From contig CAMRBN010000001.1 of NCBI GenBank assembly GCA_947040455.1, positions 1-64,000 on the forward strand: a DNA stretch of 64,000 nucleotides, written 5' to 3'. The notes under the pieces are model-generated. The model saw only the letters and a program-made list of their open reading frames with translations, searched no databases and had not been told where the DNA came from. Positions 2,787-32,012 of the stretch are shown here, one piece after another. Within the stretch, counting starts at the first letter, position 1. Each line of letters begins with the position of its first letter. The position numbers were made by a program, and so were the translations under genes. This stretch comes from an uncultured Mycoplasma sp. (GTDB lineage Bacteria > Bacillota_I > Bacilli_A > Mycoplasmatales > Metamycoplasmataceae).

Positions 2787-4211
2787 ATGAATGAAATTAA
2801 ATGCCCAAATTGCCAACAAGTAATTACTGTTAACGAAACTTTTTACTCATCAATACTTGAACAAGTGCGTAGCCATGAATTTGAAAAAGATGTTGAAAAT
2901 CATACAAAATTAATTGAAAAAGAAAAAATAAAAGAATTAGAATTATCAAAAGCTAATGCAGAAACAAAATTACAACAATCACTTTCAGAATCCAAACAAG
3001 AAATTGAAAAATTGAAATCGCAAGTTAATGAAGCTGAAAACTTAAAATTAATCGCTATTAAAAATAAGGAATCAGAGAGTAATGAATTAATTGCAAAACT
3101 ACAAGAACAACTTAAAAATAATGAAAAAAATCAACAATTAGATAAAGATGCTGCGTTGAATCTTGCTAAAGCTAATGCAGAAACAAAATTACAACAATCA
3201 CTTTCAGAATCAAAACAAGAAATTGAAAAATTGAAATCCAAAGTTAATGAATCTGAAAATTTAACATTAATTGCTATTAAAAATACAGAATCTGAAAATA
3301 AGGATATTATTTATCAAAAAGAAGCTGAAATTAATAATTTAAAAGCAGAAATTGAGAGCTCAATTACTAATAAAAAATTAGAAATTAACTTAATAGAAGA
3401 TGGTCATAAAAATGAACTTAAAATGAAAGAGCAACAAATTGATTTTTATAAAGACCACAAAGCAAAACTATCTACCAAAATGATGGGAGAAACATTAGAA
3501 TTGCATTGTGAATATGAATTTAATCGCTTAAGACCAACTGGATTTCAAAGCGCAAAATTCTTTAAAGATAATGATTCAACAAATGGTAGTAAGGGTGACT
3601 ATATTTTCAAAGATTATAGTGATAACGGAACAGAATTCATTTCAATTATGTTTGAAATGAAAAATGAAGCAGATACTACTGCTACCAAAAAGAAAAATGA
3701 AGATTTTCTAAAAGAATTAGATAAAGATCGAAACGAAAAAAATTGTGAATATGCTATTTTAGTTTCTTTATTAGAAAGCGACAACGAATTATATAACACA
3801 GGAATAGTAGATGTTTCTCATATCTATAAAAAAATGTATGTAATTAGACCACAATTCTTCATCCCAATAATAACTTTGCTTAGAAATGGTGCTTTGAATT
3901 CAATTAAATTCAAAGAAGAATTAGCGTTGATTAAAGAACAAAATATTGATATCACTAATTTCGAAGATGAAATCAAGGATTTTCAAGGTAATTTTAGTCG
4001 TAATTATGATCGAGCAAGTAGAAAATTTGGTGTTGCAATCAAAGAAATAGACAAAACAATTGATAGCCTTAACAAAACAAAAGAAGCTTTAATGTCATCC
4101 GAGAATAATCTTAGATTAGCAAATAATAAAGCTCAAGATTTAAGTATTAAAAAATTAACAAAAAATAATGATACTATGTCTCAAAAATTCAAAGAATTAG
4201 AGAGTAAATAA
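2787..4211 (+). CDS. DUF2130 domain-containing coiled-coil protein
   Basis: N-term MNEIKCPNCQQVI zinc-ribbon-like start, long coiled coil, KMMGETLELHCEYEFNRLRP...KGDYIF...FEMKNEADTT core typical of DUF2130. Confidence 0.85.
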   Translation: MNEIKCPNCQQVITVNETFYSSILEQVRSHEFEKDVENHTKLIEKEKIKELELSKANAETKLQQSLSESKQEIEKLKSQVNEAENLKLIAIKNKESESNELIAKLQEQLKNNEKNQQLDKDAALNLAKANAETKLQQSLSESKQEIEKLKSKVNESENLTLIAIKNTESENKDIIYQKEAEINNLKAEIESSITNKKLEINLIEDGHKNELKMKEQQIDFYKDHKAKLSTKMMGETLELHCEYEFNRLRPTGFQSAKFFKDNDSTNGSKGDYIFKDYSDNGTEFISIMFEMKNEADTTATKKKNEDFLKELDKDRNEKNCEYAILVSLLESDNELYNTGIVDVSHIYKKMYVIRPQFFIPIITLLRNGALNSIKFKEELALIKEQNIDITNFEDEIKDFQGNFSRNYDRASRKFGVAIKEIDKTIDSLNKTKEALMSSENNLRLANNKAQDLSIKKLTKNNDTMSQKFKELESK

Positions 4212-5343: not shown

Positions 5344-5592
5344 ATGACATTTGTCAACAAACAAGTCGAAAAGGACTTTAAAAAAATTGATTGATCAATG
5401 AGAGAAGTGATTGAAACAAAATTAGAAGGGGATCAAAGACTTTTAACATTACCGAGCCAAAAACTAAGAGGTGGTAATCTAGGATACAGGGTCAAGCACC
5501 ATAAATATAGAATTTTTTACACCTTAGATGAAAATAGTATTCTAATTTATAAAATAGGTGAAAAAGATAAAAATGCATATGGAGGAATATAA
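5344..5592 (+). CDS. Type II toxin-antitoxin RelE/ParE family toxin
   Basis: MTFVNKQVEKDFKKIDWSMREVIETKLEGDQRLLTLPSQKLRGGNLGYRVKHHKYRIFYTLDENSILIYKIGEKDKNAY; conserved L.G...YR.R...YRI.Y pattern. Confidence 0.8.
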
Positions 5593-5594
5593 GA

Positions 5595-7850
5595 ATGAAT
5601 AAAAACAAAATAATAGTAAATAACTTTATAAATGTTATTAAAACAATAGAAATGAGGAATAATCATTCATCAACAAAAAAGTTTGATGATGAATTTTTAA
5701 AAATGCTGATTGATGAAGTTAATATATTAAACATTGATGAAATGATTAGTGATTATAAATTTAGTGATAGTCCAGCAAGAGAAAATGGTTATTTTGATGA
5801 TTTTTTTGCAAAATTTTATTCATTTGAAAAAAATGAAGAACATATTTTATTTCAACAACATAATATGTATTATGAAATAAAAATATTTCATGAAAATCAA
5901 ATTAGAAAATATTTTAATGATGAATATGGGTTATATGAGTTAAATTTAACAAATTGTTCATTTATGAGTATTTTCTTAACTTTATTAAAGGAAATAAAAT
6001 TCAAAAATGAAGGAAATAAATTTAATGATTGCTTTGAAAAAATGAACCAAAAATGATGAGTATATTATACCCAAGAAACTGGTGAGTACAATAAGTTAAG
6101 AAAAATTATTATTCAAAGAATTATTAAAAATTATATTATTTCCGAGAATGGCCTAAGAGGACAAACTAATGATTACAAATTATTTTTAAAATATTTGAAC
6201 AAATATTCAATTGAAGATAGTAAAATATCAAAACTACTGTTTTTAGCTTTAAATGATGATAAGAATTGTCTTCATTGATTCAATTTATTTGCGAATTTAG
6301 ATATCAAAGATTTCAAAAAAAATAATATAATCTTTTCTTTTGTTCAAGAAACTGCATTAGAAAGAATTGACAAACTACTGAATCTAAATTCCTCAATCAA
6401 ACTGTTATCACATGAAGTTTACTCTATTTTATCTAATCCAAAAATTAATTATTTATTTTTTAAAAATAGAATAATAAATAAAAATATTCAAAATGATTTA
6501 CAAGAATATTCAAACACAAATTTTTTTATTTATGTCTTTTATTTATTGAAATATAATAATCAAGAAAAAAACATTTTAAAATTTGTGAAAGATTTTTTTG
6601 ATGAACTTACTAGAAAAATAGATTTGGAAAAATTTACTAAAGTTGACGAAATAGAGTTGAAAATAATTGAAGATTTGATTGAACCAATTGATGAAAATAA
6701 ACCAACAATATTTAGTGCTTGAAAGATTTTTAAAGATTTATTTTCTTCTCTAAAAATAAGTGAGTCTGCTTATGAAGAGATAATTAAATGCAAGACCACA
6801 AAAGAAAATGCCATTAATTATATTAACAATCATTTTGACAATGATGTCAATGATTTTTGTAAAAGAAATTCCAACATCAAATGTACTACATCAAATTTAA
6901 AAGATTTTTTTATAGAAAATCAAGATGAAAAAGAAAATAAAAATGGTTATATTTTAGAATTTATTAATATATTTTTAATTCTTAAAGATAAAAAAGAAAT
7001 ATCAATCAAAGAAATTGATGGTTTGTTATCTTATTTTATAGCTCGCTTTGAATATATATATGCTGAAAAATATCAAATAATATTCACAAATTATTCAGCA
7101 TTGAATAAAAAAGAAATACTTGCTAATATCAACATGTTTCTTGATAAAAAACATCAATTAAATGATGTTAATAAAGTTAGTGATGATGTTTGAAGAACAT
7201 TTATTGAATATGATTTATTATCATTAAAAGATATTAATAATTGATCAAAATATGAGCAAAAGGGCGATAAGCTTTATGCAATAATTATTAACAAATTAAT
7301 CATCAAAGGTAATTTGAGAGAATCAAGAGATAAATCAATTTATGAATCAGCTATATTCCAAGATAAAATATTTAAAAAAATAAACCTTACAAAGTATTTG
7401 ATTAAAAGTGAATTATTATGAAAAAAGAACTTCAAAAGTGCTGATTACTTAGAATACTTGTTATTTGCATTGTTCAAAAACTACGGTTATGAAACTGCAG
7501 AATTATTTTTAATCAATCTTTTAAAAGTCGCAGGTGAATTTAGAGACGTTGCAAAGAGAGATCTTGTATCTATAGTTAGGGTTCCGCGTATTTGTGTTGA
7601 ATCCTCAAAAGAAGATTATTATACTCGTCCTTATTATGTAGCATATGATTTTCACTTGAGATTAATTGAATCTATTAAGGATTTTTATTGTGTTGATTAT
7701 TTTGAAAGCATGAACTATGATTTTCCTAATTGACATCAAATAAAAGAAGAAAATGAACAAGAAATATTTGCATTTTTAACTGAATTTTTAACTAAAGACT
7801 TCAAATCATTTGATTTATATCTTCAAAATAAATTTAGGAAGGATAAATAA
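5595..7850 (+). CDS. Large protein (~751 aa) with C-terminal RNase III-like catalytic domain
   Basis: Continuous with TGA=W; C-term KYEQKGDKLYAIIINKLI (E-x3-D) and, 59 residues after that D, KSADYLEYLLFALFKNYGYETAELFL (D-x2-E), matching RNase III signature LEFLGDAVL...ADxFEALIGALYLDxG. Confidence 0.6.
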
Positions 7851-7856
7851 CTACAT

Positions 7857-9668
7857 ATGTTTAAACAAAATATAAAAAGTTTTGATTGAAAAAAATTCAT
7901 AACATTAATTTTTATATCTCTGATACCAACTATTTATACAACTATTAGGATTTATTTTCTCGGAGAATTTGACGATCCGTATACTTATAGTATTGCTGCT
8001 CAAATATCTTGATTAAATGTTTTTTTCGAAATTGTTAGTGAAGCAATTATAATTCCCTTATTTTTTCTAATATCAAAAAGAAAAAATAATGAATTAATGC
8101 TTTTTAATAGAATAAAAACCGGATTTTTTCTCAATTTATTTATTTATTTTATCGTGACTATTGCTTTAATATCTGCTCTTCAACCAATTTTAAATTATCT
8201 TATTCAAGATGAAGTACTGAGGGATAAAAGTAGAGATTATATCTTTTTAGAATTAATTGCCTCATTCTTTTCTTCAATCTTTAAATATGTTTTGGTAATT
8301 TGAATAGTTCTTAATAAAAACACCAAAATAATTTTCAGCTTCCTAGTTCAAATGATTTTCATAATTTTATTTGATACATTCTTTATTAGTAAATTAAATA
8401 TCTCTTTGAACTTATCAATTATCGGGATTGCTCTTAGTAATATTTTAACAAATATTATTCTAGTAGGACTAAGTGTGTTTTTCCTTTATCAAATGAAGGT
8501 TAAGATTTGAATCATTAAAGATTTAAATTTCAAATGAATGATTCAATATTGAAAAATTGGGATTGGTTCAGGTTTGGAATCACTTATCAGAAACTTGTTT
8601 TTTACCTTTATGGTCCTAAAAATTCTCAATGATGTTAATGGTTCAGGAGACTATTGAGTTGCTAATGGATTTATCTGATCTTGATTGCTTCTTCCTGTAA
8701 TCGCGTTAGGAACTACAATCAAAGCTGAAGGTGATGCTAATAAGGAAGTTTTCAAAAGTAAGATGTGAGTTTATTTGTTGATAGTGACAGGGATAATTGT
8801 GATTTGACTTGTTACAATACCTTCTTATAGTTTATTTATACGCGATGTCCTAAATGTAACTAATTATCAATATATCTTTAAAATAGTAATGATTTTATTT
8901 CCCTTTTATATTTTGTTTGCCATTAATAGTGTTTTTGACGGAGTGCTAATTGGCTGAGGTAGAACTGATTTATTACTTTATCAATCTATATTTGCCAATG
9001 TTTCAATCTATCTTCCTTACTTTATCGCTCTAAAAACTGGAGCTTGAATACCAAGCGTTGAAGGAGTTGCAATCATGTTTGGCATAGGAATGACGGTTGA
9101 TTCCATATTAACAATAATAATGTTTGTCGTTCTTGTAAAATTTGATAAAAAACTGATTTTAACCTTTGAAAAAAAGAATATAAAGAGAAAAACATTTGTT
9201 TTTGGAATGCCTACCGTTGGAAAAACAACATTTGTCCAAAATAATCCAAATACCACATGAGATTCTGATAACTTATATCACTATGTATCTTCTGTCAACC
9301 AAGATTCCTATAATGCTTTTGATATTGATCATAATTTTAGTAAAAAATTATTAGCAACCACTAATAAAAAATTATTAAAATCCAATTTTGACATCATTTT
9401 TTATTCCGTCTTACCTATTGAACTTTATGAAGAAATAGATTGACTAATATATAAGAATGTCAATATCGTCTTTATCAATAGAACTGGAGAAGATTATCAA
9501 TATGAATGATGTAAGAGGAAAGAGAAAGTTAATAATGATGTTTGTGACTTAAATATTGAAAATGCTTTATTAACATCCAAATTCATTAATGAACAAGCAG
9601 AATTTTTTAAAGTCAAGTTAGTAAACTTAGAAAAAGAAAAATATATTAGTGAAGAAACATTAATTTAA
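7857..9668 (+). CDS. MATE-like membrane transporter fused to C-terminal P-loop kinase-like domain
   Basis: Single 604-codon frame with TGA=W; ~12 hydrophobic helices then RKTFVFGMPTVGKTTF Walker A. Confidence 0.7.
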
Positions 9669-9837: not shown

Positions 9838-10533
9838 ATGAAAATAAATAAGAAGGAAAAAGAATCACTGATTAATGATATGTATGCAAAATTATCTGAA
9901 AATGAAGTAGAAAGGGGATTCCCTGTTTTAGCTGCTACAATAGATAAAAACACCAACACAAATATTGTTATAAAAAATAAAAGATCCTGTAACGGAACAA
10001 ATACTGACATTAATAATCATGCCGAAATAATTTTATTAAAAGAGATTGAAGCAAAAAAATTAAATATTGAATTTATATTAATTAGCCTGCCGCCTTGTTT
10101 TAATTGTTTTGAAAAAATGAAAGAATATGTGAAAAAAAATAAAATCAAAATATTTTTTTTAGTTGATGTTAGAAACAAAAAAAATGAAAGGAAATATGTA
10201 AGAGAAAATGATGATATTAGTTTTTTTAAATGAAAGGAATTAGAAAAAAATATAGAATTTACTTTAAAAATAAATTTTATAATTATGAATTGTATTTTTG
10301 GGTTTTTCAACCATAAAAAACCAGCAAAAAATATCAAGAAAATACTAAAATTTACAAAAGAAGAATTTAAAAAATTTAAAAAAGTAATTGATAAATTAAA
10401 AATTAAAAAGAATAATATAAATGATAAACAGCTAAGTAATATGGTGGAAAAAACTAGAAAAATAAAAATAAAGAATATGACCATTAAAAACATTAAAAAA
10501 GATGATGAGTTTTATTGAATTATTAAAAAATAA
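9838..10533 (+). CDS. Cytidine/deoxycytidylate deaminase-fold protein with Lys-rich C-terminal tail
   Basis: NNHAEIILL and LPPCFNCFEKM (HAE...PCxxC zinc motif); continues through TGA=W into a basic tail, stop TAA 10531-10533. Confidence 0.75.
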
Positions 10534-13816: not shown

Positions 13817-16246
13817 ATGAACAAAAAAGAAGAATACATCCTTAATTATTTTAAAGAATTAGCTGCTTTTGAAGACCAAGAATCACACAAAGCATCTTTA
13901 CTAAACGAACAAAAGTCTAAATCATGAATCAATGTTTATGACAAAGTTAAAATCAAACCACATTCTGTTCTTAAAAAATATTTAAATCCAAACATCACTC
14001 TTGGATCACATAACAATAATAGTAGCAAGATATTTCCCTTTGGTGCCAACACTTCTCAAATAAGCGCTGTCACTAATGCCCTAGACAACCAAATAAGTAT
14101 TATAGAAGGTCTTCCAGGAACCGGAAAGACACAAACCATATTGAATATCATTGCTAACTTATTAATCAGGAATAAGAGCGTGCTTATTATTTCCAACAAT
14201 AATAAAGCGATTGAAAACATCAAAGATAAAATGGAAGAATATGGTTTGGATTTTTTAATCGCCTTTTTAGGAAATAAGGAAAATAAAGAAAAATTTTTAG
14301 CAACACAAATTACAGAATATCCTCAAGATATTTTAAATTGAAATTTTAGAATGAAAAAACGCAACTATTTAAACGAAACTTTGGAAGAGCTAAAAGAAAT
14401 TTTTATCAAGAAAGAAATAATTGCTAAAACAACTCATGAATTGAATGAATTAAAATTAGAGTTTTCATATTTTAAAGATATTTACCATGATACAACAACT
14501 TTTACTGATCAATTTAGCAAATTATCTTCGAAAAAATTAATGTCTTTGATTAATATTTATGACGATATACTTAGAAAAAATAAGGGCAAAAGAATATCGT
14601 TATTAACCAAGATAAAAATTTACTGAAAATATCGATTAAAAATTTATCAATTTGAAGATTCTAATGCCTTAAAGTTTCTCTTTTATCAAAATAAAATCAA
14701 AGAATTAACAGAAATCATTACAACTAATGAAAAATGATTATTACTTCATGATGAAAAAAGAATCTCAAATCAATTTTATGATGACTCTTTAAAGGTTTTA
14801 AAAAAGAATCTTTTCTTAAAATACAATACAAATGAACCAAGAAAGCAATTTGAAGCAGAAGATTTGTGACAAGATGGTAAGTCAGAAGCTTTTGTCAAGG
14901 AATATCCCATAGTTCTTAGCACTACTCATTCAGCATTTGATACATTAAATAGTAAGTTTGACTTTGATTATGTCATTATGGATGAAGCTTCACAAGTTAG
15001 ATCATTTAATACCTTACCGATTCTTTCAAGAGCTAAAAACTTAGTAGTTGTTGGTGATACCAAACAACTACAAGATATTAATGAACACAAAGAAGAAGGA
15101 AATAAAATATTTCAAAAACATCGATCAACTGTTGATGATTTTTATAATGATTCTGCTAACAACTTCCTTGCTTCAATTGCCAAAAGTAATCCCAAAATTA
15201 AAAGGGTTATCCTAAAAGAACATTATCGTTGTCATCCCCAGATAATTAATTTTTGTAATAAAAAATTCTATAATAATGAACTCATAATTATGACCAAAGA
15301 TTATGGAGAAAAAAATGTTCTTGAACTGCAAGAAACCACTAAGGGAAATCATGCTGATTGATCCAAAGTCTTAGGAACCTTTAATCCTCGAGAAATCGAG
15401 ACAATAAAATTAATTTTAAAAGATGGTTACTTTGCTAATTTAGCAAAAGATAAAATCGGTATCATTTCTCCTTATAGAAGACAATGTAATGAAATCACCA
15501 AAGAATTAAATGGAGAAATTAAAGCTATCTCTACTGTTCATAAAATGCAAGGAAATGAAAAGGATGCCATTATATTTTCCACTGCAGCAAACTATATTAA
15601 TAACTTTGTGAACAACCCTGAATTAATCAATGTCGCTATTTCGCGAGCTAAGGAAAAATTTATTTTAGTGACTAATGGTAATAAGCAACAATCCAAAACA
15701 AAAAAAACTAATAATATTGAAGATCTTATTGAATATATTAAATATATCAATAAGGATCATATGAACAAAGAAATCAGGGTTGAATCAATATTTGACTTAT
15801 TATATTCTCAATATAAAGAAGAGCGTAAGAAGTTCCTGAAAAACACTAATAAAATTTCCAAATATGATTCCGAAAATATCTTTAATGTGCTTCTTAGTGA
15901 AGTGATCAAAGATTATCAATTCTTAGATATTGCTTTTCAATACCCTTTAAGATTATTAATTAAAAATAAAGATCTCTTAAAAGCATTTCCTGACCTTATG
16001 AAATTTGCTGCTAATAATTGGACTCATCTTGATTTTATTGTTTATAACAAGATAACAAAGAGACCAATTTTAGCGATTGAAGTTGATGGATACTCAACTC
16101 ATGGCAAAGATTCAAAACAAATAGTTAGAGATACTAAAAAGGACAAGATATTAGACTTATATGATTTTCCTTTATTAAGATTAAGTACTAAGGGATCTCA
16201 AGAGAATATTAGGATAAGAGAAATGCTTGATAAAATTTTGTTTTAG
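13817..16246 (+). CDS. SF1 (UPF1/DNA2-like) helicase with C-terminal DUF2726-like nuclease fold
   Basis: IIEGLPGTGKTQTILNII, VIMDEASQVRS, KEHYRCHPQIINF, STVHKMQGNEKDAIIFS, NVAISRAKEKFILV; C-term LDFIVYNKITKRPILAIEVDGYSTH. Confidence 0.88.
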
Positions 16247-17905: not shown

Positions 17906-19271
17906 ATGAAAAGATTAGTTGATCAAAAACTTGAATCTTGATTAAATAACCCTGATAAATTACCCTTATTTGTCTTGGGCGCAAGACAAATAGGAAAAAC
18001 TTATTCAATTAAAGAATTCGGCAAAAAAAAATTTTAAAAATAAAACAATATATGTCAATTTCTTAGATCAAGATGATTATTACAAACATTTGAATAACAT
18101 GAGCAATCCAGAAGAAATAATAAATACAATTAAAATTATTTCCAAAAAACCAATTGATACTTCTTGATTAATTATTTTTGATGAAATACAAGAAGTAAAT
18201 GAACTTAAAACTTCTTTGAAAAATTTTGTAGATCAAGAATTAAAATACAATATTATTTGTTTAGGAAGCTATTTAGGAAATATGTTAAATGATAAGTCAT
18301 CATTTCCTGTTGGAAAAATAGAAAGAATAGAAATGTTCCCACTTAATTTTGAAGAATTTTTAATTGCTTCTCAATATGAAGATTTAATAATTGATATTAA
18401 GCAAATGATTAGCAAAAGAATTGCTATGTCGCAAATTAAACATTCACTTTTAGTTGATTTATTGCATAAATTTATGATTATTGGCGGAATGCCTAGAGTG
18501 ATTGATACTTTCCTAAAAACAAACGATGAATTAAAACAAAGCAAAATAAAAGAAGATTTAATCATTGATTATCAACAAGATATTATCAAATATATCTCTA
18601 ATAAACCAGATAAGTTAAAGTGTCAAACTTTATACAAAAGTATTCCAACTTTTTTAGCCAAACAAAATAAAAAAATTGTTCTTTCACAAATAGATAAAAA
18701 TGCAAGATATTTGAATTATTCTAATGCCATTGAAAGTTTATTAGCAACAAAAATAGTTTATAAAATTAATAATATCAACACCTTTAGCACTCCTTTAACA
18801 ATTCATAAAAATGAATCAGAATTTAAAATATATTATAATGATTGCGGTTTTTTATCTGCTAATTTAAATCAAACTTTGAATACCTTAGAAAATAAAGATA
18901 ATGGATATATAAGAGGATCAATTGCTGAAAACTTTGCTTTATCAGAACTAGCTAAAAAAATTAACATTAATAATATCTATTACTATTCTTATCAAGATGA
19001 CAATAACAATAGATATGAAGTAGATTTTGTTATTGAAGATATTGATGGAAAAATAATTCCAATAGAAATAAAGTATGGCACTAATTTTTCTACTAAAAGC
19101 TTAAATAATTTACAATCCCATTACCCTAAAATTAATGCAATTATTTTTTCATCAAAAAATTTTAGTGATAATAAATTAACAAAAACATTTTGTATTCCCT
19201 TATATGCAATCGGTTTTATGAAATATCATTTGAATAGAATTGAAATAGATACCAAAACTAAAACAAAGTAA
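17906..19271 (+). pseudogene. AAA_14/DUF4143-type ATPase, frameshifted at A9 tract
   Basis: MKRLVDQKLESWLNNPDKLPLFVLGARQIGKTYSIKEFGKK; A9 tract 18023-18031 shifts frame; remainder NFKNKTIYVNFLDQDDYYKHL...WLIIFDEIQE...GSYLGNML...YEVDFVIED to TAA 19271. Confidence 0.8.
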
Positions 19272-19388
19272 AATTACTTGTTTTTGTTAGATTAGTTTTT
19301 GATTAACATTGCTAAAATTCAAGAAGCATATTTAATTGATGCTTTCATTAAAAAATTAAGGTAAAATTAAAGATACATCGGGGTTTTA

Positions 19389-20228
19389 ATGAATAACAAA
19401 AATGAACATGATTACATTACCAAGCCATTTGTCAAATGGGCTGGTGGGAAAAGACAAATAATCAATAAAATAGTGCCTTTATTACCAGAAAGTTATAATA
19501 CTTATATTGAACCATTTGTCGGTGGCGGAGCTTTGTTATTTAACTTAAAACCTAATAGCGCAATTATTAATGATATTAATAAAGAGTTAATTACTTCCTT
19601 TGAAGTAATTAAAGATAATTATCTTGCGCTACTCAAAGTTTTAAACACTTACCAGAAAAAACATTCAGAAGATTTTTATTATCAAAAAAGAAAATATAAA
19701 CCAAGAATTAGTTTGAATATTGCTGCAAGGTTTATGTACCTTAATAAGTCTTGCTTTAATGGTTTATACCGTGTTAATTCAAGAGGTGGATTCAATGTTC
19801 CATTTAATAAATCAAAAACAGTTAATATTTATGAATTAGCAAATATTAAAAATATCAATAAATATTTAAATAATCATGATGTCAAAATATTTAATCAAGA
19901 TTTTGCATCAATTCTTGATAAATCTCAGGAAAATGATTTTATTTTTTGTGATCCTCCTTATGATACCGATACCAACCAATTTACTTCTTATAGTGCAAAA
20001 TCATTTGGTAAACCAGAACAATTGCTTTTGGCCAATAAACTAAAAGAATTAGATGCTCGTAATGTTAAGTGAATGCTAACGAATCATGATACTGATTACA
20101 TCAAAGAACTTTATGGTCAATTTGAGATCAATATAATCTCAGTTAATAGGAGCATTAATCCCAATGGTGCTAAGCGAAAAAATGGTTCCAATGAAGTCAT
20201 CATCACCAATTATCGAAAAGTGCTTTAA
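19389..20228 (+). CDS. DNA adenine methylase, D12 class (Dam family)
   Basis: KPFVKWAGGKRQII, YIEPFVGGGALLFNL, DFIFCDPPYD. Confidence 0.92.
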
Positions 20229-20750
20229 ATGAAGCGAAATAGCACAGGACAAGGTCATCTCACTAATAAAAACGGTAAGCCCTTTGAAAAAATAGTCTTA
20301 CAAGATATTATTGAGAAATTAAACTTATATGAATCTAAAGTTTTAAATGTTAATTGTTACAAAAACCAAGATAATAGTTTTGTTGTTTTTGAACAACGCA
20401 ATTTTTACAAATATGCCAAAGAAAAACATAATCTTGATTATAAAGATAAAGCAAGTAAAGTTTATGTTGCCGATCTATGAGTAATGAAAGATGAAAAAGA
20501 TTTGTTTTTAATAGAGATTAAATCACAAACTTCTTCTGGCTCTACAGAAGAAAAAATATATGGTGGCTTAATGCTCAACTTAATCTATAAAGAAATCTTT
20601 AACAAAGACCAATTTAATTATCAAAAAATGTGTTATGTGACAAATGATTACTTTGAACAAAAAAGATTTGATACTCCAAAGGAAATACTTAAAAAACATG
20701 GGATTGATTTTTATATAAATAATCTTGATCTTGATTGAATAAACAAATAG
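20229..20750 (+). CDS. Putative type II restriction endonuclease, PD-(D/E)xK-like
   Basis: Starts immediately after Dam stop; VYVADLWVMKDEKDLFLIEIKSQTSSGSTEEKIYGG (D...ExK); TGA=W. Confidence 0.65.
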
Positions 20751-20785
20751 ATATTAAGTTTATTTTTTTTAAATTAAAGTTACAA

Positions 20786-22075
20786 CTATTCAGTATTTAT
20801 TTTTGATTTTAGTTTTTTAATCTCTTCATCTTTTTCATTCATTTGCTTTTTATTTTTATATGACTTAACTTTAGAATAAATAGAGTCCCACGAAGAATTT
20901 GTTTTAGCAAAAACAACTGGGTTTTTTGATATTTTTTCAAGTTGATCTATAACTGAAATAACTAAATTGGAACCAATTTCTTTTCAAACAGTGATAGGAT
21001 CATAATCTCAAGTTAATCCATCATCAGAAACCAGAGCTCTAAAACCGGAAATAACAGGATAAATTAAACCTCCTGGAATTTTGAATGTTCCTTTTTTGCC
21101 ATTTACAGTAGCTATAATATCCATTTGATTTCAAGTAGTTGTATTAATTTTATTCTCTTTTGAAATTCCGTTTTTTTCTATTTCACTTCACTTCAAAAAA
21201 GTGTATTTAGTTGCAAATTGTTTCTTCGTCACTTTTGCAAATTCATGAAAATCTTTTTCTATTTCATCTCATAAATCAAAAATTTTGTCCCAAATTTCTT
21301 TCTTGTCCTCAATATCTTTATTCCTTAAGTTTGTATCATTATATTTTAATATAAATTTTTTTAAACTCACAGATTTTCCAGAGTATGACTGAATTGGGTG
21401 ATCCGCTTCATGGTTAGGGTCATAAATTTTATCATTAAAAACATTCATAAGAGCTATTAAATCTCTAACATCAATGTATTTTGTATTAGAATCTTCTCCT
21501 TTTTCAAACATTTTTCAACTGATTCTATCTTTAAAATTTTTATCTTTAATAATGTGTTTTAATTCATCAAATGAACCTTTTAAATTCTCTATAGATTTCA
21601 TATCAACTGCAGCAGAAGTATTTCTTGCCTCGGCTATTTCTATCGCGAAATCTTTAGAATTAATTCCTGTAATTATTTCAAAATATACATATTTATTTAA
21701 AGATTTTTTAATTTCAATATCACTAAGTTCAAAAATCACTTTCAATGTATGACCACCATCAACATTCCCGTGAATTTCATCATTATCAAACGTAATTGTA
21801 AAGTGATTATCATCAAATTCTGCATCTTGTGCAGAAAACAAAATACCTCTATTAAGTAAATGAAATTCATCATTATCATTAAACGATTTTTTAATGGCTT
21901 TCGAAACATCTGTAGCTAAATTTTGCAATCTAGGATTTAAATTAAATCATCTCTCTAAAATTTCTTGATTTTTTCTTAGTTCTGAAACAAGAAAATAACC
22001 TACAATTTTATGATATTTACCATTAGGATCTTTTATTTTTGTTGTTTTTGTATTATAAAATTTTATTTTTTGCAT
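20786..22075 (-). CDS. AIPR (abortive infection phage resistance) family-like protein
   Basis: Reverse frame 430 codons with TGA=W; FHLLNRGILFSAQDAEF...IHGNVDGGHTLKVIFEL...RNTSAAVDMKSIENLKGSFDELK. Confidence 0.7.
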
Positions 22076-22315
22076 ATTTTCTTCCTACAAAAGAAACACA
22101 ACTTAAAACTTATATGTATTTAATTTTTACTTTTAAATAGTATAAAATTAAAGAAACTTTTGTAATTTAAATATTACCAAAAAATAGGATTTTTTAAAAT
22201 TTTATTAATTTTTAATAAAACATTACTCGAACCCTTTTAACTTATTCATAATATAATATGTTTTAAAGATAAAATACAATTATAGATTGAATAAATAATT
22301 GCATTTGGAGGCATC

Positions 22316-23626
22316 GTGGAATACACAACACTTGATCAAATAATTACAAAATGTGCAGAAATTAAGAACAAGAAAGTTAAAGATATTTTAACAACGCAAA
22401 ATGTCTTGGAATCTCATGATCAAACACAATTAGAAAACTTAATTAAAAAAGAAGTTTTCAACATTAAGTTACAGAAAAACAATCCTAATAATTTTGAAAA
22501 ATTAGGGATTAAATCAAAAGTAACTGGATTAATAAAATATAAAAAACCTGATAATGAAGGCAGAAAATATAAAGCGAAAGAAATTATTTCATTAGGAACA
22601 ATTAGTGATCAAGTTATTCTTGATGAACCTAATTTTGAAAAATCAACTTTATATAAGCAAATGCAAAAGACTTTATATGTTTTTTATGAATATAGATATG
22701 ACAAACCAATGTCTGAATGAAAGATTATTGATTTTAAATATGTTGAACTAGATGCATCAACCAATATTAAAACATTAGCAAATGATTACGAACTGATCTT
22801 TGCAAAAATTAAAAAAGGTAAGAGTGAAGACTTAACTCATTCTTCGACAGAGGAATTAAGCATTACTATCCCTAAAACAATACAACCAAACTTAGAAAGT
22901 TCTGCTCAATCCCGAGTTTTTTTATTAAAACCTAATTATGTTAATAAGATATTTTATAGCGAAGGTATCAAAGTTAATGATGCTGACGTCATGTTTTTAA
23001 TCGTTAATAAGATCCAACCTTTTCATGGATTAACCATTGGAGAAATATATAAGGAAATGAACTTACCTATTTCAGAAGCTAAAAATCAAAAAGATGCCAT
23101 CATTAATAAATTATTAAATACTAAGAGTTATGATGAAATCCCTAACATTAAACCAAGTGTTTTTAAAATTAGAAATATTGAATTAAAAAATAATGGCAAA
23201 CTCAAAGATGAGATTGCGTTAATGAATGTTAATGATAATGAATTTTTGAATGATGTTCCCTTTAATGAAAGTGAACTATATACCTTTTTAATTTCTTATA
23301 AGTTTCTTTTCATTGTGTGACAAAAAAGAGGAGAAGAATCTGTTTTCAAAGATGTGATGCTTTTTCAATTTGATAACAAACTAATTGCAAAAGCTGAATT
23401 TGTTTATAACGATACCAAAGAGAAGTTTTTAACAGGAATGGAATTAGAACGAGTTGGAGACAGAACAATGTCTAATTTGATACATAAATCAAGTAATATG
23501 GGGATTTTACTAAGACCTCATGGACAAAATAGCAAAGATACTATGACAACTCCCTTTGGACAAGTAATTACCAAACAACAATATTGACTTAATAGCAATG
23601 AAGTTGAACGTGTTATTACAAATTAA
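22316..23626 (+). CDS. Sau3AI/MutH-like restriction endonuclease
   Basis: GTG start after GGAGGC; two MutH-like halves: FEKLGIKSKVTGLIKY...KAKEIISLG and KNQKDAIINKLL...VFKIRNIELKNNGKLKDEIALM. Confidence 0.7.
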
Positions 23627-23654
23627 ATAACACAATAAAATAGAGGGATAACAT

Positions 23655-23891
23655 ATGACACAAAAAGAATTACAAGAGTGATTTGAAGAATTAGAAACAC
23701 TAATTGAAAAACACCCAAGACAGTGAGACACATTTAAACGCACTTCAAGACATTTAGAAAATGTTTCTTGCATCTCTTGTATTTATGGATCACCATCCAA
23801 AGAGCAATTAAATGAAAACCATCGATTTTCAATAGCAATGAATCCCAGAAGATGTGCTGTTTGTTTTATTAAAACTGAAGCTTTGCTTTAA
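23655..23891 (+). CDS. Small hypothetical protein with CxxC pairs
   Basis: MTQKELQEWFEELETLIEKHPRQWDTFKRTSRHLENVSCISCIYGSPS...PRRCAVCFIKTEALL; 28 nt after Sau3AI-like gene. Confidence 0.6.
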
Positions 23892-24039
23892 ATATATAAT
23901 TAAAAACTAAAAAATGAAGTTTAATTTTAATAATTATATTTATAACTTTTTAACAAATATATTTATGCTAATCAATGATTTTTTCAGAATAACAAAATCT
24001 GTAATTTAAAATAGAAAAGAAAATTATTTGAAGTTAGAT

Positions 24040-24792
24040 TTATTTTTCTTTTTGTTCCTTAACTGCTTTTTTTATTTCTCTTCCATATGCTCATAAATAA
24101 ATATCTATTTGTCTATTGGTTAATATTTGTAATTCATCTTGTGATTGTAAACCAAAAAGAGTAATAAATTGATTAATTGCAATATAAAAGTTTTCATAAT
24201 TTTTACTTAAATTATATTTTTTAAAATCTATAAAGTCGTTTCCGAATTTCGCTTGATATTTACCTTTGAATTTCTCTTTCAATTCAAATAATGATTCAAT
24301 TACATAAGAATCCAATATAAAGAAAAAACCATTATTTTGAAAGAAACAAAATTTAGATGCGAAAGAAATATAACGTGGTTCTTTTTTAATAATTTTTTCG
24401 CCTTTTTTCTCTTCAACTAAAAGTTTTGCAATTTTTTCAACGAATTTTATACAATGATCATCAGATTCAAGAGGATTGTTTATCAAGCAAGGATTATCCA
24501 TGTATTTCTTTTCACCATAAATAGATACTATATGCTCCGCCATATTATTTATATGTATATTTTTAACTCCAGAAGAATAAAGAGTATTTAATGCAGCAAC
24601 TTTTAAAAGTACCTTTTCAAAATCATCATTTTTATTATGTTTTTAAAATAATTTGTTTAATATATCATTATTAATTTTAAAAAATTTTTCTTCTTCAAGA
24701 ACTTTATCAACAACATCTATTACATTTTTTTGTTTGGTTCTTTTAATCTTATATCATATTTCATAATTGTCATTATAAGTGATAAAAATCAA
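24040..24792 (-). pseudogene. Hypothetical protein with in-frame TAA (nonsense) near 24643-24645
   Basis: Reverse frame ITYNDNYEIWYKIKRTKQKNVIDVVDKVLEEEKFFKINNDILNKLF*KHNKNDDFEKVLLKVAALNTLYSSGVKNIHINNMAEHIVSIYG...KAVKEQKEK in one frame on both sides of TAA. Confidence 0.5.
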
Positions 24793-25008
24793 TAAATTAT
24801 AAAAATTAATAGTAAAAAATATTAATTGATTAACTAAGAAATTGTACAAAATCACATGGATGTGATAACAAAACACTGTGAAAAATCCATTGTGATAAGT
24901 AATTAGCAATAATGATTAAATGGCAATAAAGTTGAAGGATAATTTTAACTAAGAAAAATTTAAATTGAATATTAGGAAAGATTATTTAAATTGTTATATG
25001 ATTTTAAA

Positions 25009-26253
25009 ATGAAATTATCAGAATTATTATCTCTTAGAGAATTGGCATATGAATATCTTTTAGGAGCTCTTTATTCTTTCAAGTATAAGGTAGGCGATGA
25101 TTATTTAATCATTTTTGCTTCCAAGATACAACAAAAAACAAATCATATTCCTAATATAGATGACTTTTCAGATCAACTTAAAAGAGCTTCTGATTTTTAT
25201 AAATTTGATTTTCTATCTATTCTAAAACCATTAAATGAAATTGAACAATTAGAAAATTCAAAATTTGAAACTTGAATTGGATATGGTTTAATTGTTAAAA
25301 ATGATATACCCAAGCATAATTTAAATATAGAAATATTAAAAAAAATGAATGTGGGTAAAAATAAGGAACATTTCCTGCGCGGTCTTTTTGATTCAAGATC
25401 AAGTATAGACACTACCGCCTGATACTTATCTATGGATATGAGAAAAGATGATTCAAAATGATTTGCAGGAAACATTTACAAAATGTTAATAACCACTTTC
25501 CCACACTTTAGAATAAATATAAATCCAAGATTTTTACAACCAGGTGTAGAATCTAGAGCAAAAAATCCACAATTGAGAATTGTTATTTTTGACTACTTTG
25601 GATTATTAGGCACTTTTAGAATAAATTATTTTGAAAAAGCAAAAATAGCAAAATGATGAAAAAAATTAAATAACGGTTCTATTATTCCTTCATCATTTGA
25701 TAATTTGATTAAATGAGATACTTCTCAACTTCAAAATTTAATAGATGTTAAGAAAAAACCTAAAATTGATGAATTAGAAAATGATGAAGAATATTCTAGC
25801 TCAGAACTTTCCAAAGATGATAAATTGAGTTTGTATGAATATTACCTTTATCAACATGAACGAAATCAAAGACAAATTCCTTTGAATAAAAATGAAATAA
25901 AAAGAAGAGCAAAATTATCAAATGAGACAGTCATGAATGTTTTGGAGAAATCTAATAGAAATGATTTTTTTGCACCCACAATAGAAACTTCTAAAAATAA
26001 AAGGGGCGAGCCTTTGTTAGATATACACCACATTATTCCCCATAGATATAGTTATATTTTTGATGAAAAACATGTTATTGATCAAACAGAAAATCTTATA
26101 GCAATTACTCAAAATAACCATTATTTACTCCATCGTGGAGAATTTTCTGAAATTAAAATCAATATGCTGCAACAAATGTTTGAACATGTTGAAGTTTATT
26201 TAAAAACAAACAATATCAATATTTCATTTGAAGAATTCAAAAGTTTGTATTAA
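25009..26253 (+). CDS. Endonuclease with LAGLIDADG-like segment and C-terminal HNH domain
   Basis: FLRGLFDSRSSIDTTAWYLSMD (LAGLIDADG-like); LLDIHHIIPHRYSY...NLIAITQNNHYLLHRG (HNH); TGA=W. Confidence 0.65.
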
Positions 26254-26316
26254 CCAATATATATTTGTTATAATTGAGGAATAAAAATTATACCCTCAAA
26301 TATAGTTAGGAGAAAT

Positions 26317-28095
26317 ATGTTTAAAATACTAGATTTATTTTCCGGGGCTGGTGGATTCTCTGTAGGACTTGAAAAAAATAAAAAATTTAGCACTGTAGTT
26401 GCTGTTGACTTTAATGAACAAGCATTAAACACAATTAAACATAATAATCCAAAAATAAAAACCATACTAGGGGATATAACTGATTCTTCTGTTAAAAATA
26501 ATATTATTGAAATTTCAAAAAAATTTGGAGTTAATTTTATCATAGGTGGTCCGCCATGTCAAGGATTTAGTATGAAGGGTAAAAAACAAGGACTCAAAGA
26601 TCCTAGAAATTTTTTATTTATTGAATATTTCAACATGGTTAAGGCGATAACGCCTGAAATTTTTATTATTGAAAATGTTCCGGCCATTATAAATTCATCA
26701 AATGGCTACTTCATGAATGAAATAAAAGATAAATTTAAAGAATTGGGTTATATTTTGAATTATGATATTTTGAATGCATCTCACTTCGGTGTTCCTCAAA
26801 ATAGAAAAAGAGCATTCATAATAGGTTCTAAAACACTAAAATTTGATTTGCCTTTAGGTGATAAATTGAGTCTAGTTACAGTTCAAGATGCAATTTCAGA
26901 TCTTGCATATTTAGAATCAGGAGATATTAGTCATAAGCGTCCATATACAACTAATGCTGAATCTAATTATCAAAAACAATTAAGAAGTGAGTCACACACT
27001 CTATTTAATCACTCATCAACAAATCATTCAAAGGAAACTCTTTATAAGTTATCTTTAATACCAGAAAAAGGAACTAAATTAAATCTTCCCGAAAACTTAA
27101 GAACTAATCAAAAATTTAAAACAACATGGTCAAGATTACATTGAGACCAATTATCTCCAACAATAGACACCAGATTTGACACTCCATCTAATGGGAAAAA
27201 TACTCACCCCACTTTAAATAGAGCAATAACACCCAGAGAAGCTGCAAGAATACAATCATTCCCTGATTCATATGAATTTATCGGCGGGAAGTCAGAAATA
27301 TGCAAGCAAATAGGTAATGCAGTTCCTCCTTTGTTAGCTAGCGCTGTTGGAGAATCTATATTAAAACAAATAAAATCAATATCTCAATCTTCTAATAATA
27401 ATTATGAACTATATAATGGTGATACATATAAAATGTCAGGAAAAATAAAAGACAATTCTATTGATGCCATAATTACAGACCCGCCATATAACATATCTAA
27501 AAAAAATAACTTTTCAACTTTGAGCGGTAAAAGAAAGGGTATTGACTTTGGAGAGTGGGATAAGGAATTTGATTTATATTCTTGAATAAGTGAATATTAC
27601 AACAAATTAAAAGATGGTGGTACTTTTATTATTTTTGGTTCTCACTTATTTGTTTCACACATTTCAGATGAACTAACCAAGTGCGGAGCGGATGTTAAGG
27701 ATTTGTTGAAATGAATAAAATCTAATCCAATGCCTCGAAATGTTGAAAGAAGATATGTTTTAGATACAGAATATGCTGTTTGAGCTGTAAAACCAAAGGG
27801 AAAATGAGTTTTTAATAAACCTAACGGAATTCCATATGTAAGAGCTGAATTTAAAACAGGAGTTGTTTCAGGGAAAGAAAAACTAAATCACCCCACTCAA
27901 AAATCATTAAAATTAATGCAAGAAATAATCTCAATACATACAAATAAAAATGATTTAATACTCGATCCTTTTATGGGCTCTGGAACAACAGGAGCTGCTG
28001 CATTATTGTTAGGACGTAAGTTTATAGGTATAGAAAGAGAATCAAAGTATTTCAACATATCTCGCGAAAGAATTGAGAATATAATTAATAAATAA
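26317..28095 (+). CDS. Bifunctional DNA methyltransferase: N-terminal m5C MTase fused to C-terminal beta-class amino (N4-C/N6-A) MTase
   Basis: One 593-codon frame with TGA=W: LDLFSGAGGFSVGL, GGPPCQGFS, ENVPAI, QIGNAVPP (m5C motifs I, IV, VI, X) followed by ELYNGDTYKMSGKIKDNSIDAIITDPPYNI ... NHPTQKSLKLM ... LDPFMGSGTTGAAALLLGRKFIGIE. Confidence 0.9.
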
Positions 28096-28130
28096 GTATA
28101 TAAATTTAAGTAGTATAAAGGAGGTTTTGC

Positions 28131-29126
28131 ATGATTCAATTAGACAAAGATACTTATGAATCAATTTATAAAATATTAATTGATACAGACAAAATGTCAA
28201 ATAAACTATATAAAGATAATCCTCGTATAAATGCTAAATTTTTTGTTGATGCAATATTTCAAGATTATTTTATTGGAAAAACTGTAAATAGTATTGATTT
28301 GAAATATACTCAAAAGTCAACCACTAAAATTGTTATTGAAACTAAAGGTCAAAATATGACTTGAATCAAATATAGATTTAAATTAATTAAATCAAGCAAA
28401 GAATTAACAAAAACTATTTCTTCAAGGTTTTCAGAACAAGATTTTAAAAACTTTTTAATTATATATATGACAAAAACAATTAATAAAAATGAATTATTTC
28501 ACAATTCCAAAATTTTGAGCGAAAAAGTCTTAAATGATTGAAAAGAATATTTAAAAATATTGAAGATTGATAAATCAATTATCGATGAGGATAACTGGTG
28601 AAAAATATCGAAAGATAAGGGTAATTTAGTTTTGATAAATCATTACGGAAACATAAGTATTAAAGAACAAAAAGAATTATTAAATATTAAAAACGACCAA
28701 AATATAGATAATCAAACTAAAAAATGCTTATATAAAGCAAGAATTGGACAAGGTAAGTATAGAGAAGACTTATTGACACTACACAATAACACATGTATGA
28801 TTTCCGGCATTAAAGCTCCCGAACTTTTGATAGCAAGTCATATTATTCCTTGAGTAGAATCAAATCATATTGAAAAGCTGGATAAAAATAATGGATTATT
28901 ATTATCTGCAAGCATTGATAAGCTATTTGACCAATACTATATTTCATTTGATGATAATGGTTTCATGATTATTTCTGAGAAGTTTAAACAAACACATACA
29001 AATTACAAAGACATTATGTCTACCATCGGAATTTATAAATCATTTATTGAGCAAAGAAAATCTTTATCACTATCCAAAGAAACTAAAGAATATATGAAAA
29101 GTCATTTTAGGGAATTAAAGAAATAA
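28131..29126 (+). CDS. HNH endonuclease (probable restriction enzyme partner)
   Basis: ARIGQGKYREDLLTLHNNTCMISGIKAPELLIASHIIPWVES...NGLLLSASIDKLFD; TGA=W. Confidence 0.8.
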
Positions 29127-29130
29127 TATT

Positions 29131-30144
29131 TTATCAATTAGCAACAAATTTATAAGGTGTAATAAGAATTTTATTATTTTCAAAATCATATCCCGTTTTA
29201 TCAAAACTGATTTCTATTTTAGGAGCATTAATAATTATTAGATTTGGAGTGTATAAATTACCTTCATCATATCTTTTTATATTTGAAACAAAGTATAGAT
29301 AATAATTTTCGGATTGCTCTTGATAAAAAGCATATTTTGATCTAGAAATAAAGAATTTACTCAAACTACTTTCAGTTGTTGATTTAACTTCTATATATTT
29401 TACTTGATTATTTATCTTCACTTCAAAGTCATAATTAGAGTATTTATTCTTACTTGAAACTCAATTAACATTTACCTCACCATATTGTTTGATAAGATGC
29501 TTGTAAACTAATTGTTCTCCGCATTCTTGAGTTAACATAAAGTAATCATGATCAGATGATGATGTTTTTGGGATTATTGGTATGTATTCAACAGTGCCTT
29601 TTTTAAGGTCAGTAATATCTAAAACTTCCAACTCTTTTTCTTGAGATATTTTTTTAAATTGTTCTCTATAATTTTGACTGCTACCCGCATCTGTAAACAA
29701 AGATAAATAATAACTATCTCACTCTTTAAGAATATTTTGATGCGCTTCTTTGTTTATGTTTTTCAAGATTACATTAATGTAATCTCTGACTGCTATTTGT
29801 ACTTTGGGAATTCCAAATTTTTCCAAACCTTCTTTTAAAGAATTTCCAAAGCTCCCGAATTTTAGCAATTGTTTTAATGAATTAATGTCCATTCCATGAG
29901 AATTAGAATAAACATCTTTGACTGTTAAATTTCTTTTTCTATTAATTATTCTTGTTTCATTTAAGTAATATTCATTAATATTATTTGCTGTATCTTTTTT
30001 GAAATAATAATCAATCATAATAGAAACATAAAAAGATGCATCTATTCTACACCTACCCTTGCGTCAAACATCATTTTTAAAATATGATTCACTTTTTTCA
30101 TATGTTGATGTAAGCAAATTAATTATTAATTCATTTTCATTCAT
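29131..30144 (-). CDS. DUF3883 domain-containing protein
   Basis: Reverse frame 338 codons with TGA=W; C-term YDFEVKINNQVKYIEVKSTTESSLSKFFISRSKYAFYQEQSENYYLYFVSNI. Confidence 0.75.
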
Positions 30145-30147
30145 AAC

Positions 30148-30214
30148 AACAGTATACAGGAAAATATAGTGGTTAAAATGATATTAAAATTTAATTTTTT
30201 TCCTGTATACTGTT
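30148..30214. promoter_or_regulatory. Perfect 17-bp inverted repeat in divergent intergenic region (candidate operator)
   Basis: AACAGTATACAGGAAAA (30148-30164) and TTTTCCTGTATACTGTT (30198-30214), 33-nt spacer, between gene starts at 30144(-) and 30291(+). Confidence 0.7.
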
Positions 30215-30290
30215 TTTTACTAATAAGTAATAAATGAAATGAATTTTAAAAACTTTTTCAATATATTTCAATCAAATAAAGGAATAAATT

Positions 30291-32012
30291 ATGGACATAT
30301 CAAAAAGATCAATTAACGATATATTAAGAACTTCAAATAATTTAATAATTCCTTTTTACCAAAGAGAATATACATGAAACCAAGAAGAGATAAAGAGATT
30401 ATTAGAAGATATTGTGTCTTGTGAAACAAATAATTATTATTTAGGATCATTAGTTTTAAAAAATCATAAAACTTCCAGAGTGATAATTGATGGTCAACAA
30501 AGAATCTCAACTATTTGGTTAATCCTAAAAGCAATATATGATAAAAATGATCAATTGGATAAAGATTATTCAAATGAAATTAAAAGAGATTTAGAAGGTT
30601 TTGAATTCAAAACAATGAATTTAAAAGATGCAGGTATATTGAAAAACATAATAACAGATAATACTTCTTCTTTTTCTGAAAAAGAAGAACAATCTAATTA
30701 TTTTTTAAATTATCAACAAATCAAATCTCATTTGAATACATATAATGTAGATTTAAATCTTTTTTACATTAACTTAAGAAAGATTGTGTTCGCTTTAGTC
30801 ATAGCGGAAGAAAAAATTGATGAACATATTCTGTTTTCACAAATAAATTCAACAGGAAAAAAATTAACTGCTTTCGACTTGGTAAAAAACTATTTATTTT
30901 CTAAAATAAATGAAAGATATCTTAATGAAGAAAATCTTGATAAAAAACTTGAAGAAAAAACAAATTTATTGACACTATCAACAGATTGCTTAAAAAATGA
31001 TAAAGATAAAAATAGTTTTATAAGGCACTTTATATCTTATAAAACTAATGAACTAGTTAATAACGACTCCTTAATTCTTTATGCATCTTTTGTAGATTTA
31101 TTTGATAAAAAAATTTATAGTGATATATTGACTGCTTTTGATGATTTATATCTCTTTGCAACTATTTATAAATATATATTAAATAAAGAATGATTGGGTG
31201 AAAAATATGAAAAATCTATGAACATATTATATCCTTCATCAAATACATATATGGCTTTGTTTATTGATATATTTCATAGAAATTCAAACTTGATTGATAA
31301 GAAAATAATTATAAATGAACTACAAAAATCAAATATTAATAAATCATTAATGGTTTTAGAGTATTATAAAGTTACCAGAGAGTTCTATGGCTCAACAGAA
31401 AAAACTATAACAAGATTTATACCCAAGTTAGTAAATGAAATTAACAAACTAGAACTAAATATTTCATATGAAGCTAAATTGTTCTATAAATTATATACAG
31501 AACCAAACAGAGATATAAAGCGTAATAATGATTTCAAATATAGAATGCCTAGAAATGTTGAATTTAAATCGTCTTTTTATTCATTTAATTTATATAAAAA
31601 ACAAAGTTTTTGCAAAATTCTTTTAATTAGATTATCCAGTTTTCAAGAAAAAATGAAGATCGATTTCAAAACATTTACAATAGAACATATCTTGCCGCAA
31701 ACACTAACTGATTGAAGAGCTGCAGGATATAAAGAAGGAGAAATGGATATTGTTGCTAAAGAAGGAACAATTGGAAACTTGACTTTAACAAATTATAATG
31801 GTGAATCATCCAACAAAGTTTTCAGCCATAAACAAAAAATAATGGAAAAAGAAGGTTGAAAGTTTAATGATTATTTTTTAAATTTGCAAAAATGAGATTT
31901 ATATGAAATTCAAAAAAGATCTGAATACTTGTTTGATAAAATAAATGAAATTTGAAATTTTTCCGAAATTGAAAAGGAGATTCAATTATCTCTTAAAGAA
32001 TTTAATAATTAA
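30291..32012 (+). CDS. GmrSD-like DUF262/DUF1524 (HNH) protein, type IV restriction candidate
   Basis: LIIPFYQREYTWNQEEIKRLLEDI, YYLGSLVL, VIIDGQQRISTIWLIL (DUF262); FTIEHILPQTLTDW...GTIGNLTLTNYNGESSNKVFSHK (DUF1524). Confidence 0.88.

What the first reader, a model, noticed from the sequence alone, without database searches (positions are those of the whole stretch)
5595..7850. Cryptic RNase III-like catalytic domain at the end of a ~750-aa protein
KYEQKGDKLYAIIINKLI and KSADYLEYLLFALFKNYGYETAELFL reproduce all four RNase III acidic catalytic positions with right spacing (E-x3-D; 59 residues; D-x2-E). The large N-terminal part is unrecognised and there is no obvious dsRNA-binding domain. The gene follows a RelE/ParE toxin by 2 nt.
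Basis: partly seen in the sequence, partly recalled or inferred. Interest (0 to 1): 0.75.

Follow-up and report, generated by a model that had tools for sequence, protein, structure and literature searches.

The report
Possible RNase III end on orphan protein
A 751-residue mycoplasma-type protein with no detectable relatives, lying in a patch of defence genes that varies between related strains, ends in a stretch that carries the four metal-binding acids of the double-stranded-RNA cutter RNase III; the resemblance is probably real but too weak to prove without a structure or an enzyme test.

Summary
Window 5595-7850 is one 751-aa frame under genetic code 4 (8 TGA=Trp), starting 2 nt after a ParE/RelE-type toxin gene. 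Its C-terminus carries E554-x3-D558, 59 residues, then D617-x2-E620, with no dsRNA-binding domain. The RNase III reading is plausible but not proven. Pfam's Ribonuclease_3 is the best of 24,736 families for residues 542-657, at only 13.8 bits against a cut-off of 27. Profiles of RNase III-like proteins, built without this protein, align it in the right register, the best above 5000 shuffles and 748 decoy frames. But 2 of 10 leave-one-out profiles, and one from five Bacilli proteins alone, do not. AlphaFold without homologues failed (pLDDT 35), so the proposed structural test stays open. The protein is an orphan: no relative in 334 genomes of its order, ~400 each of its class and phylum, phages or plasmids. 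It lies in a strain-variable gap between two conserved genes, in a window full of restriction and defence genes. The genus carries short RNase III-like proteins, three beside restriction or defence genes; a Bacilli genome carries a defence-candidate FRG protein ending in such a domain. Best reading: a defence-type protein with a C-terminal, highly diverged RNase III domain.

The parts
5344..5592 (+). ParE/RelE-family toxin-like gene (82 aa, code 4), ends 2 nt before the main gene
   Evidence: Pfam ParE_toxin 7.8e-08; PHROG RelE-like toxin 2e-07; no recognisable antitoxin gene upstream; absent from the other 59 genomes searched
5595..7850 (+). orphan 751-aa protein (code 4), predicted mostly helical at low confidence
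   Evidence: no homologue; the weak hits that were read lie in unrelated genes
5595..7094 (+). N-terminal ~500 residues, unrecognised
   Evidence: no Pfam/NCBIfam/PADLOC match above cut-off; MG284/MPN403 resemblance near residues 93-177 tested with NF045770 and not supported
7143..7565 (+). putative RNase III-like domain, residues ~517-657
   Evidence: Pfam Ribonuclease_3 best family at 13.8 bits for residues 542-657; 16.0 bits to a profile of 10 diverged RNase III-like proteins over residues 517-630
7254..7268 (+). E554-x3-D558 (first metal-ligand pair)
   Evidence: aligned to the Rnc E/D by hmmsearch
7443..7454 (+). D617-x2-E620 (second metal-ligand pair)
   Evidence: aligned to the Rnc D/E by hmmsearch
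2787..4211 (+). DUF2130 gene, conserved left border of the variable gap
   Evidence: Pfam DUF2130 1.5e-82; ~92% DNA identity in sister genome G003 up to window 4443
13817..16246 (+). SF1 helicase with DUF2726, conserved right border of the variable gap
   Evidence: 95% identical in G003, where the intervening genes are different

Best explanation
The gene encodes a horizontally acquired or very fast-evolving defence-type protein. A ~500-residue helical N-terminal part, presumably sensing or recruiting, carries a highly diverged RNase III catalytic domain at its C-terminus, with the metal-binding quartet E554/D558/D617/E620 and no dsRNA-binding domain. By analogy with RNase III it would dimerise through this domain and cut double-stranded or structured RNA with Mg2+, the N-terminal part replacing the dsRBD for substrate choice and for control. 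The ParE-type toxin gene 2 nt upstream is probably co-transcribed. Shown: the frame, the motif, the lack of a recognisable dsRBD, the strain-variable defence neighbourhood. Inferred: the RNase III fold, the cleavage activity, the role in defence, the coupling to the toxin.
For: Of 24,736 Pfam families, Ribonuclease_3 scores best for residues 542-657 (13.8 bits, E 0.11). Profiles built without this protein align it in register: 12.9 bits with 66 mollicute Rncs plus 5 short paralogues, best of 748 decoys and 3000 shuffles; 16.0 bits with 10 diverged RNase III-like proteins over residues 517-630, best shuffle 11.3 of 5000; above all 1000 shuffles in 8 of 10 leave-one-out profiles, and localised to windows containing residues ~525-655. 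hhalign ranks it first for both mixed profiles (P 3.5e-4 and 5.7e-4). In plain phmmer against 2182 frames, the next five hits after one chance protein are all frames that hold Rncs. Helix order in both low-confidence models fits. Context: variable gap between conserved genes in a window with AIPR, MutH-type, GmrSD, HNH, DUF4143 and methylase genes. Precedents: dsRBD-less RNase III-like proteins beside GmrSD, an OLD/AriA-like ATPase or restriction genes in the genus, and an FRG/PDC-S15 defence candidate with a C-terminal RNase III domain in a Bacilli genome.
Against: The Pfam score is half the cut-off, and other, surely spurious families score lower E-values elsewhere in the same protein (EF-hand_like 0.0065). 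Rnc-only profiles are beaten by one or two shuffles. Profiles without rn33 or without b182, or from the Bacilli proteins alone, lose the signal. True members left out score 24-112 bits against 5-20 here. E38 and E65 equivalents are missing. AlphaFold pLDDT was 35-37 and Foldseek found nothing. No homologue exists to show that the acids are conserved.
Confidence: 0.5

Rival explanations
1. Chance resemblance: an orphan all-helical protein of another kind, rich in K/N/I/E/D, that happens to carry two acidic pairs at the right distance.
For: The bare motif occurs in 7 of 53 window frames. Pfam match far below cut-off. Some profiles do not rank it above shuffles. No usable structure model.
Against: Several methods agree on the same register, with all four acids and helix order in place.
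Confidence: 0.33
2. RNase III fold without catalysis: the domain is a pseudo-enzyme used for dimerisation or RNA binding.
For: Most other diverged RNase III-like proteins found here have lost part of the quartet (E to A; D to S, A or T): L034, L083, L120, L121, L184, L185, L186. E38 and E65 equivalents are also missing in this protein.
Against: This protein keeps all four metal ligands, which would be unusual for a dead domain.
Confidence: 0.11
3. The protein is the partner that neutralises or regulates the ParE-type toxin, and the C-terminal resemblance to RNase III is irrelevant to its role.
For: The toxin gene is 2 nt upstream and no antitoxin gene is recognisable upstream of it.
Against: Known ParE antitoxins are small (general knowledge); a 751-aa partner would be exceptional. 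No DNA-binding domain was found in it.
Confidence: 0.06

Closest known systems
Bacterial RNase III, class 1 (Rnc; PF00636)
   Same: Register and spacing of the E41/D45/D114/E117-type quartet; helix order after the first motif
   Different: No dsRBD, ~500 extra N-terminal residues, E38 and E65 equivalents missing, 13.8 bits to PF00636 against a cut-off of 27
Mini-III RNase (MrnC)
   Same: RNase III-type domain without a dsRBD
   Different: Mini-III has no additional domains (PMC4357697); here the domain sits at the end of a 751-aa protein in a variable defence region
FRG / PDC-S15 defence candidate with C-terminal RNase III domain (L183:5809-7251, 480 aa)
   Same: Larger protein with a dsRBD-less RNase III-like domain at its C-terminus
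   Different: Its N-terminus is a recognisable FRG domain and its first acid is Ala (ELATMGD); similarity to this protein outside the domain was not tested
Short dsRBD-less RNase III-like proteins of the same genus (L033, L034, L083, L120, L121)
   Same: Same genus, three of them beside restriction or defence genes; adding them to the profiles raises the match of this protein
   Different: 134-172 aa single-domain proteins; only the L033 one keeps the full quartet; a profile of these five alone does not rank this protein above shuffles

Membership tests
RNase III superfamily (RIIID) | Metal-binding quartet E-x3-D ... D-x2-E at RNase III spacing | tested here: met
   E554, D558, D617, E620; 59 residues between the Asp residues
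RNase III superfamily (RIIID) | Further conserved acids E38, E65, E100 (E. coli numbering; PMC8708148) | tested here: not met
   S551 and K571 stand at the E38 and E65 positions; E606 may stand for E100 (sequence, read)
RNase III superfamily (RIIID) | Sequence match above the curated Pfam threshold (PF00636, 27 bits) | tested here: not met
   13.8 bits, E 0.11, although the best of all Pfam families for that segment
RNase III superfamily (RIIID) | Profile similarity beyond composition-matched controls | tested here: inconclusive
   Above all shuffles with the SR, RSB and SB profiles and in 8 of 10 leave-one-out profiles; not with Rnc-only, Bacilli-only or five-paralogue profiles
RNase III superfamily (RIIID) | Seven-helix RNase III fold with clustered acids | tested here: inconclusive
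   AlphaFold pLDDT 35-37, Foldseek no match; only the helix order fits
RNase III superfamily (RIIID) | Homodimeric, Mg2+-dependent cleavage of dsRNA | not testable with these tools
   needs biochemistry
Class 1 RNase III (Rnc) | C-terminal dsRNA-binding domain | tested here: not met
   no dsRBD family in residues 481-751 or elsewhere
Mini-III | Catalytic domain only, no additional domains | tested here: not met
   751 aa
Type II toxin-antitoxin module (ParDE/RelBE) | Toxin of the ParE/RelE family | tested here: met
   Pfam ParE_toxin 7.8e-08
Type II toxin-antitoxin module (ParDE/RelBE) | Adjacent small antitoxin gene | tested here: not met
   no recognisable antitoxin frame upstream; downstream neighbour is the 751-aa protein
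Known anti-phage systems (PADLOC) | Match to any of 5027 defence models | tested here: not met
   no match for the 751-aa protein

The most novel reading that the evidence does not exclude
A new kind of defence effector: a large helical sensor that ends in an active RNase III domain without a dsRBD, works with a ParE-type toxin, and is one of several independent adoptions of diverged RNase III domains by bacterial defence loci (short RNase III-like proteins in this genus, FRG-RNase III fusions in other Bacilli).
Probability: 0.17. Interest if true: 0.75.

Novelty: new variant of a known kind. Interest (0 to 1): 0.42.

Why it matters
RNase III domains are known in bacteria mainly as housekeeping enzymes (Rnc, Mini-III). 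My literature searches in the held library found no report of RNase III domains as dedicated defence effectors, although that library is incomplete. If this domain is real and active, together with the FRG-RNase III fusion and the short RNase III-like proteins beside defence genes seen here, it would point to dsRNA cleavage as a defence output in bacteria and offer a small, testable set of proteins.

Tried and rejected
Homologue searches of the whole protein or its parts: 60 relatives, 397 class, 334 order and 396 phylum genomes, GTDB contig scans, phages, plasmids, PDB: nothing real. Weak hits lay in an MTAN-like gene (identified by eye) and in a short MG284/MPN403-family gene; the latter lead was tested with NF045770 and dropped. 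AlphaFold on the whole protein and on residues 510-665: unusable; Foldseek: nothing. Viral-contig scans gave no answer, so viral relatives are untested there. Long mycoplasma frames containing Rnc were considered as possible precedents; the one read (L043) is an ordinary Rnc with a low-complexity N-terminal extension. No repeat or terminator clearly marks an insertion border. Literature: no paper with both 'FRG domain' and 'RNase III', none with 'RNase III domain' and 'anti-phage defense'.

Full report
WHAT IS THERE. The window belongs to a mollicute-type genome that reads TGA as tryptophan. Under code 4 positions 5595-7850 are a single 751-residue frame, preceded at a distance of 2 nt by an 82-residue ParE/RelE-type toxin gene (Pfam ParE_toxin 7.8e-08) and followed 6 nt later by a MATE-type transporter gene. 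The distance between the two aspartates, 59, compares with 61 in a dsRBD-less RNase III paralogue of the same genome and 67 in its housekeeping Rnc, counted from the sequences. The bare motif is cheap in proteins of this composition (7 of 53 window frames); the stricter form with Gly before the first Asp is found in one of 53, and this protein has it.

IS IT AN RNASE III DOMAIN? The whole protein hits no Pfam, NCBIfam or PADLOC family above cut-off. For residues 542-657 the best of 24,736 Pfam families is Ribonuclease_3, at 13.8 bits and E 0.11, half the curated cut-off. I then made my own profiles. With 44 mollicute Rncs the C-terminus gives 11.1 bits for its best stretch, above 2000 shuffles on that measure but behind two of them by whole-sequence score. 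With 66 Rnc domains plus five short RNase III-like proteins of the genus it gives 12.9 bits, above 3000 shuffles and 748 decoy frames, and all four acids fall on the catalytic columns. With ten diverged RNase III-like proteins and no Rnc, it gives 16.0 bits over residues 517-630, next best shuffle 11.3 of 5000. hhalign ranks it first among shuffles and window proteins for the two mixed profiles (P 3.5e-4 and 5.7e-4, probability 37% and 30%), but second, behind a shuffle, for Rnc alone. In a plain phmmer run against 2182 frames the next five hits after one chance protein were all frames that hold Rncs, although Rncs were over-represented in that set.

LIMITS OF THAT EVIDENCE. Rnc-only profiles are beaten by one or two shuffles, and a profile of the five short paralogues alone does not rank it above shuffles. 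In leave-one-out tests of the ten-protein profile it tops 1000 shuffles in 8 of 10, fails in two, and is invisible to a profile made from the five Bacilli proteins alone; true members left out score 24-112 bits. Other, surely spurious Pfam families reach lower E-values elsewhere in the protein. AlphaFold without homologues gave pLDDT 37 (whole) and 35 (residues 510-665), and Foldseek found nothing. The helix order of both poor models fits RNase III (helices at about 557-570, 582-595, 598-609, 616-630 and from 632 on), which is consistent but not independent proof. I therefore put the chance that the fold is RNase III-like at roughly 0.6, and do not file the protein as a member.

NEIGHBOURHOOD. 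In the closest sister genome (G003) the genes on both sides, DUF2130 at 2787-4211 and an SF1 helicase at 13817-16246, are 92-95% identical, but what lies between them is different: there a TIR-like gene, a KAP-type ATPase, an HNH-type gene and others; here the lipoprotein, toxin, 751-aa protein, transporter, deaminase-like, HNH and KAP-type genes (the lipoprotein, TIR and KAP assignments, and the G003 HNH, are my reading of the sequences). A stretch like the deaminase/HNH part recurs elsewhere in G003, beyond the helicase. The rest of the window holds AIPR, MutH-type, DUF4143, GmrSD, HNH_2, NOV_C and several DNA methylase genes. This is what a defence hotspot looks like. The protein itself has no relative in its genus, order, class sample, phylum sample, phages or plasmids, so it was acquired from an unsampled source or evolves very fast.

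RELATED FINDING. The same genus carries a set of short, dsRBD-less RNase III-like proteins. L033:5489-6007 (172 aa, full quartet, Pfam 1.8e-08) lies near an OLD/AriA-like ATPase and a GmrSD gene; L034:5470-5955 lies near what look like type III restriction genes; L083:5673-6128 lies beside a GmrSD gene; L120:5333-5737 follows what looks like era; L121:5166-5636 lies near an ATPase-like gene. In other Bacilli genomes a 480-aa protein joins an FRG domain, matching PADLOC's candidate PDC-S15, to a C-terminal RNase III domain, and four further proteins carry such domains; one lies beside a NERD gene, one beside a DUF4011/helicase gene. Most have Ala for the first Glu and Ser, Ala or Thr for the second Asp, while keeping the other two acids. 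The 751-aa protein keeps all four.

HOW IT WOULD WORK. If the domain is real, two copies would form the RNase III catalytic valley and cut double-stranded or folded RNA, with the helical N-terminal part in place of the dsRBD for recognition and control. Defence against phages is inferred from the neighbourhood only. A coupling to the toxin is inferred from the 2-nt spacing only.

VERDICT. Observation confirmed. Interpretation plausible, partly supported, not proven. If right, it is a new variant of a known kind: an RNase III domain in a new architecture and setting.

Noticed in passing
L183:5809-7251 (-), locus from a Bacilli genome (G100): 480-aa protein joining an FRG domain (PADLOC candidate PDC-S15, 1.2e-56) to a C-terminal RNase III-like domain without dsRBD; the first catalytic Glu is Ala.
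   Followed up: partly
L182:767-1924 (-), L184:4660-5133 (-), L185:4755-5177 (+), L186:4743-5249 (+): Further dsRBD-less RNase III-like proteins (140-385 aa) of Bacilli with the pattern A-x3-[DE] ... T-x2-[EF] instead of E-x3-D ... D-x2-E, some next to NERD or DUF4011/helicase genes; possibly a distinct, partly degenerate RNase III subfamily.
   Followed up: partly
L033:5489-6007 (-), same genome as the window (G000 contig 3): 172-aa RNase III without dsRBD and with all four catalytic acids, near an OLD/AriA-like ATPase gene and a GmrSD gene.
   Followed up: partly
L120:5333-5737 (+), G000 contig 1 beyond the window: 134-aa degenerate RNase III-like protein (A-x3-D, T-x2-E) directly downstream of what looks like the era GTPase gene.
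   Followed up: no
window 18090-32012: Dense run of restriction/defence genes: DUF4143 ATPase, D12 methylase, AIPR, MutH-type nuclease, fused C5 and N6/N4 methylase, HNH_2, NOV_C, GmrSD.
   Followed up: partly
window 9838-10533 (+): 231-aa protein with an AID/APOBEC-like deaminase match (SNAD4 3.7e-06) in the variable gap, beside an HNH gene on the other strand.
   Followed up: no
window 7857-9668 (+): MATE transporter (NCBIfam 7.1e-128 over residues 9-419) with ~180 extra C-terminal residues containing a P-loop-like GMPTVGKTT; starts 6 nt after the 751-aa gene.
   Followed up: no
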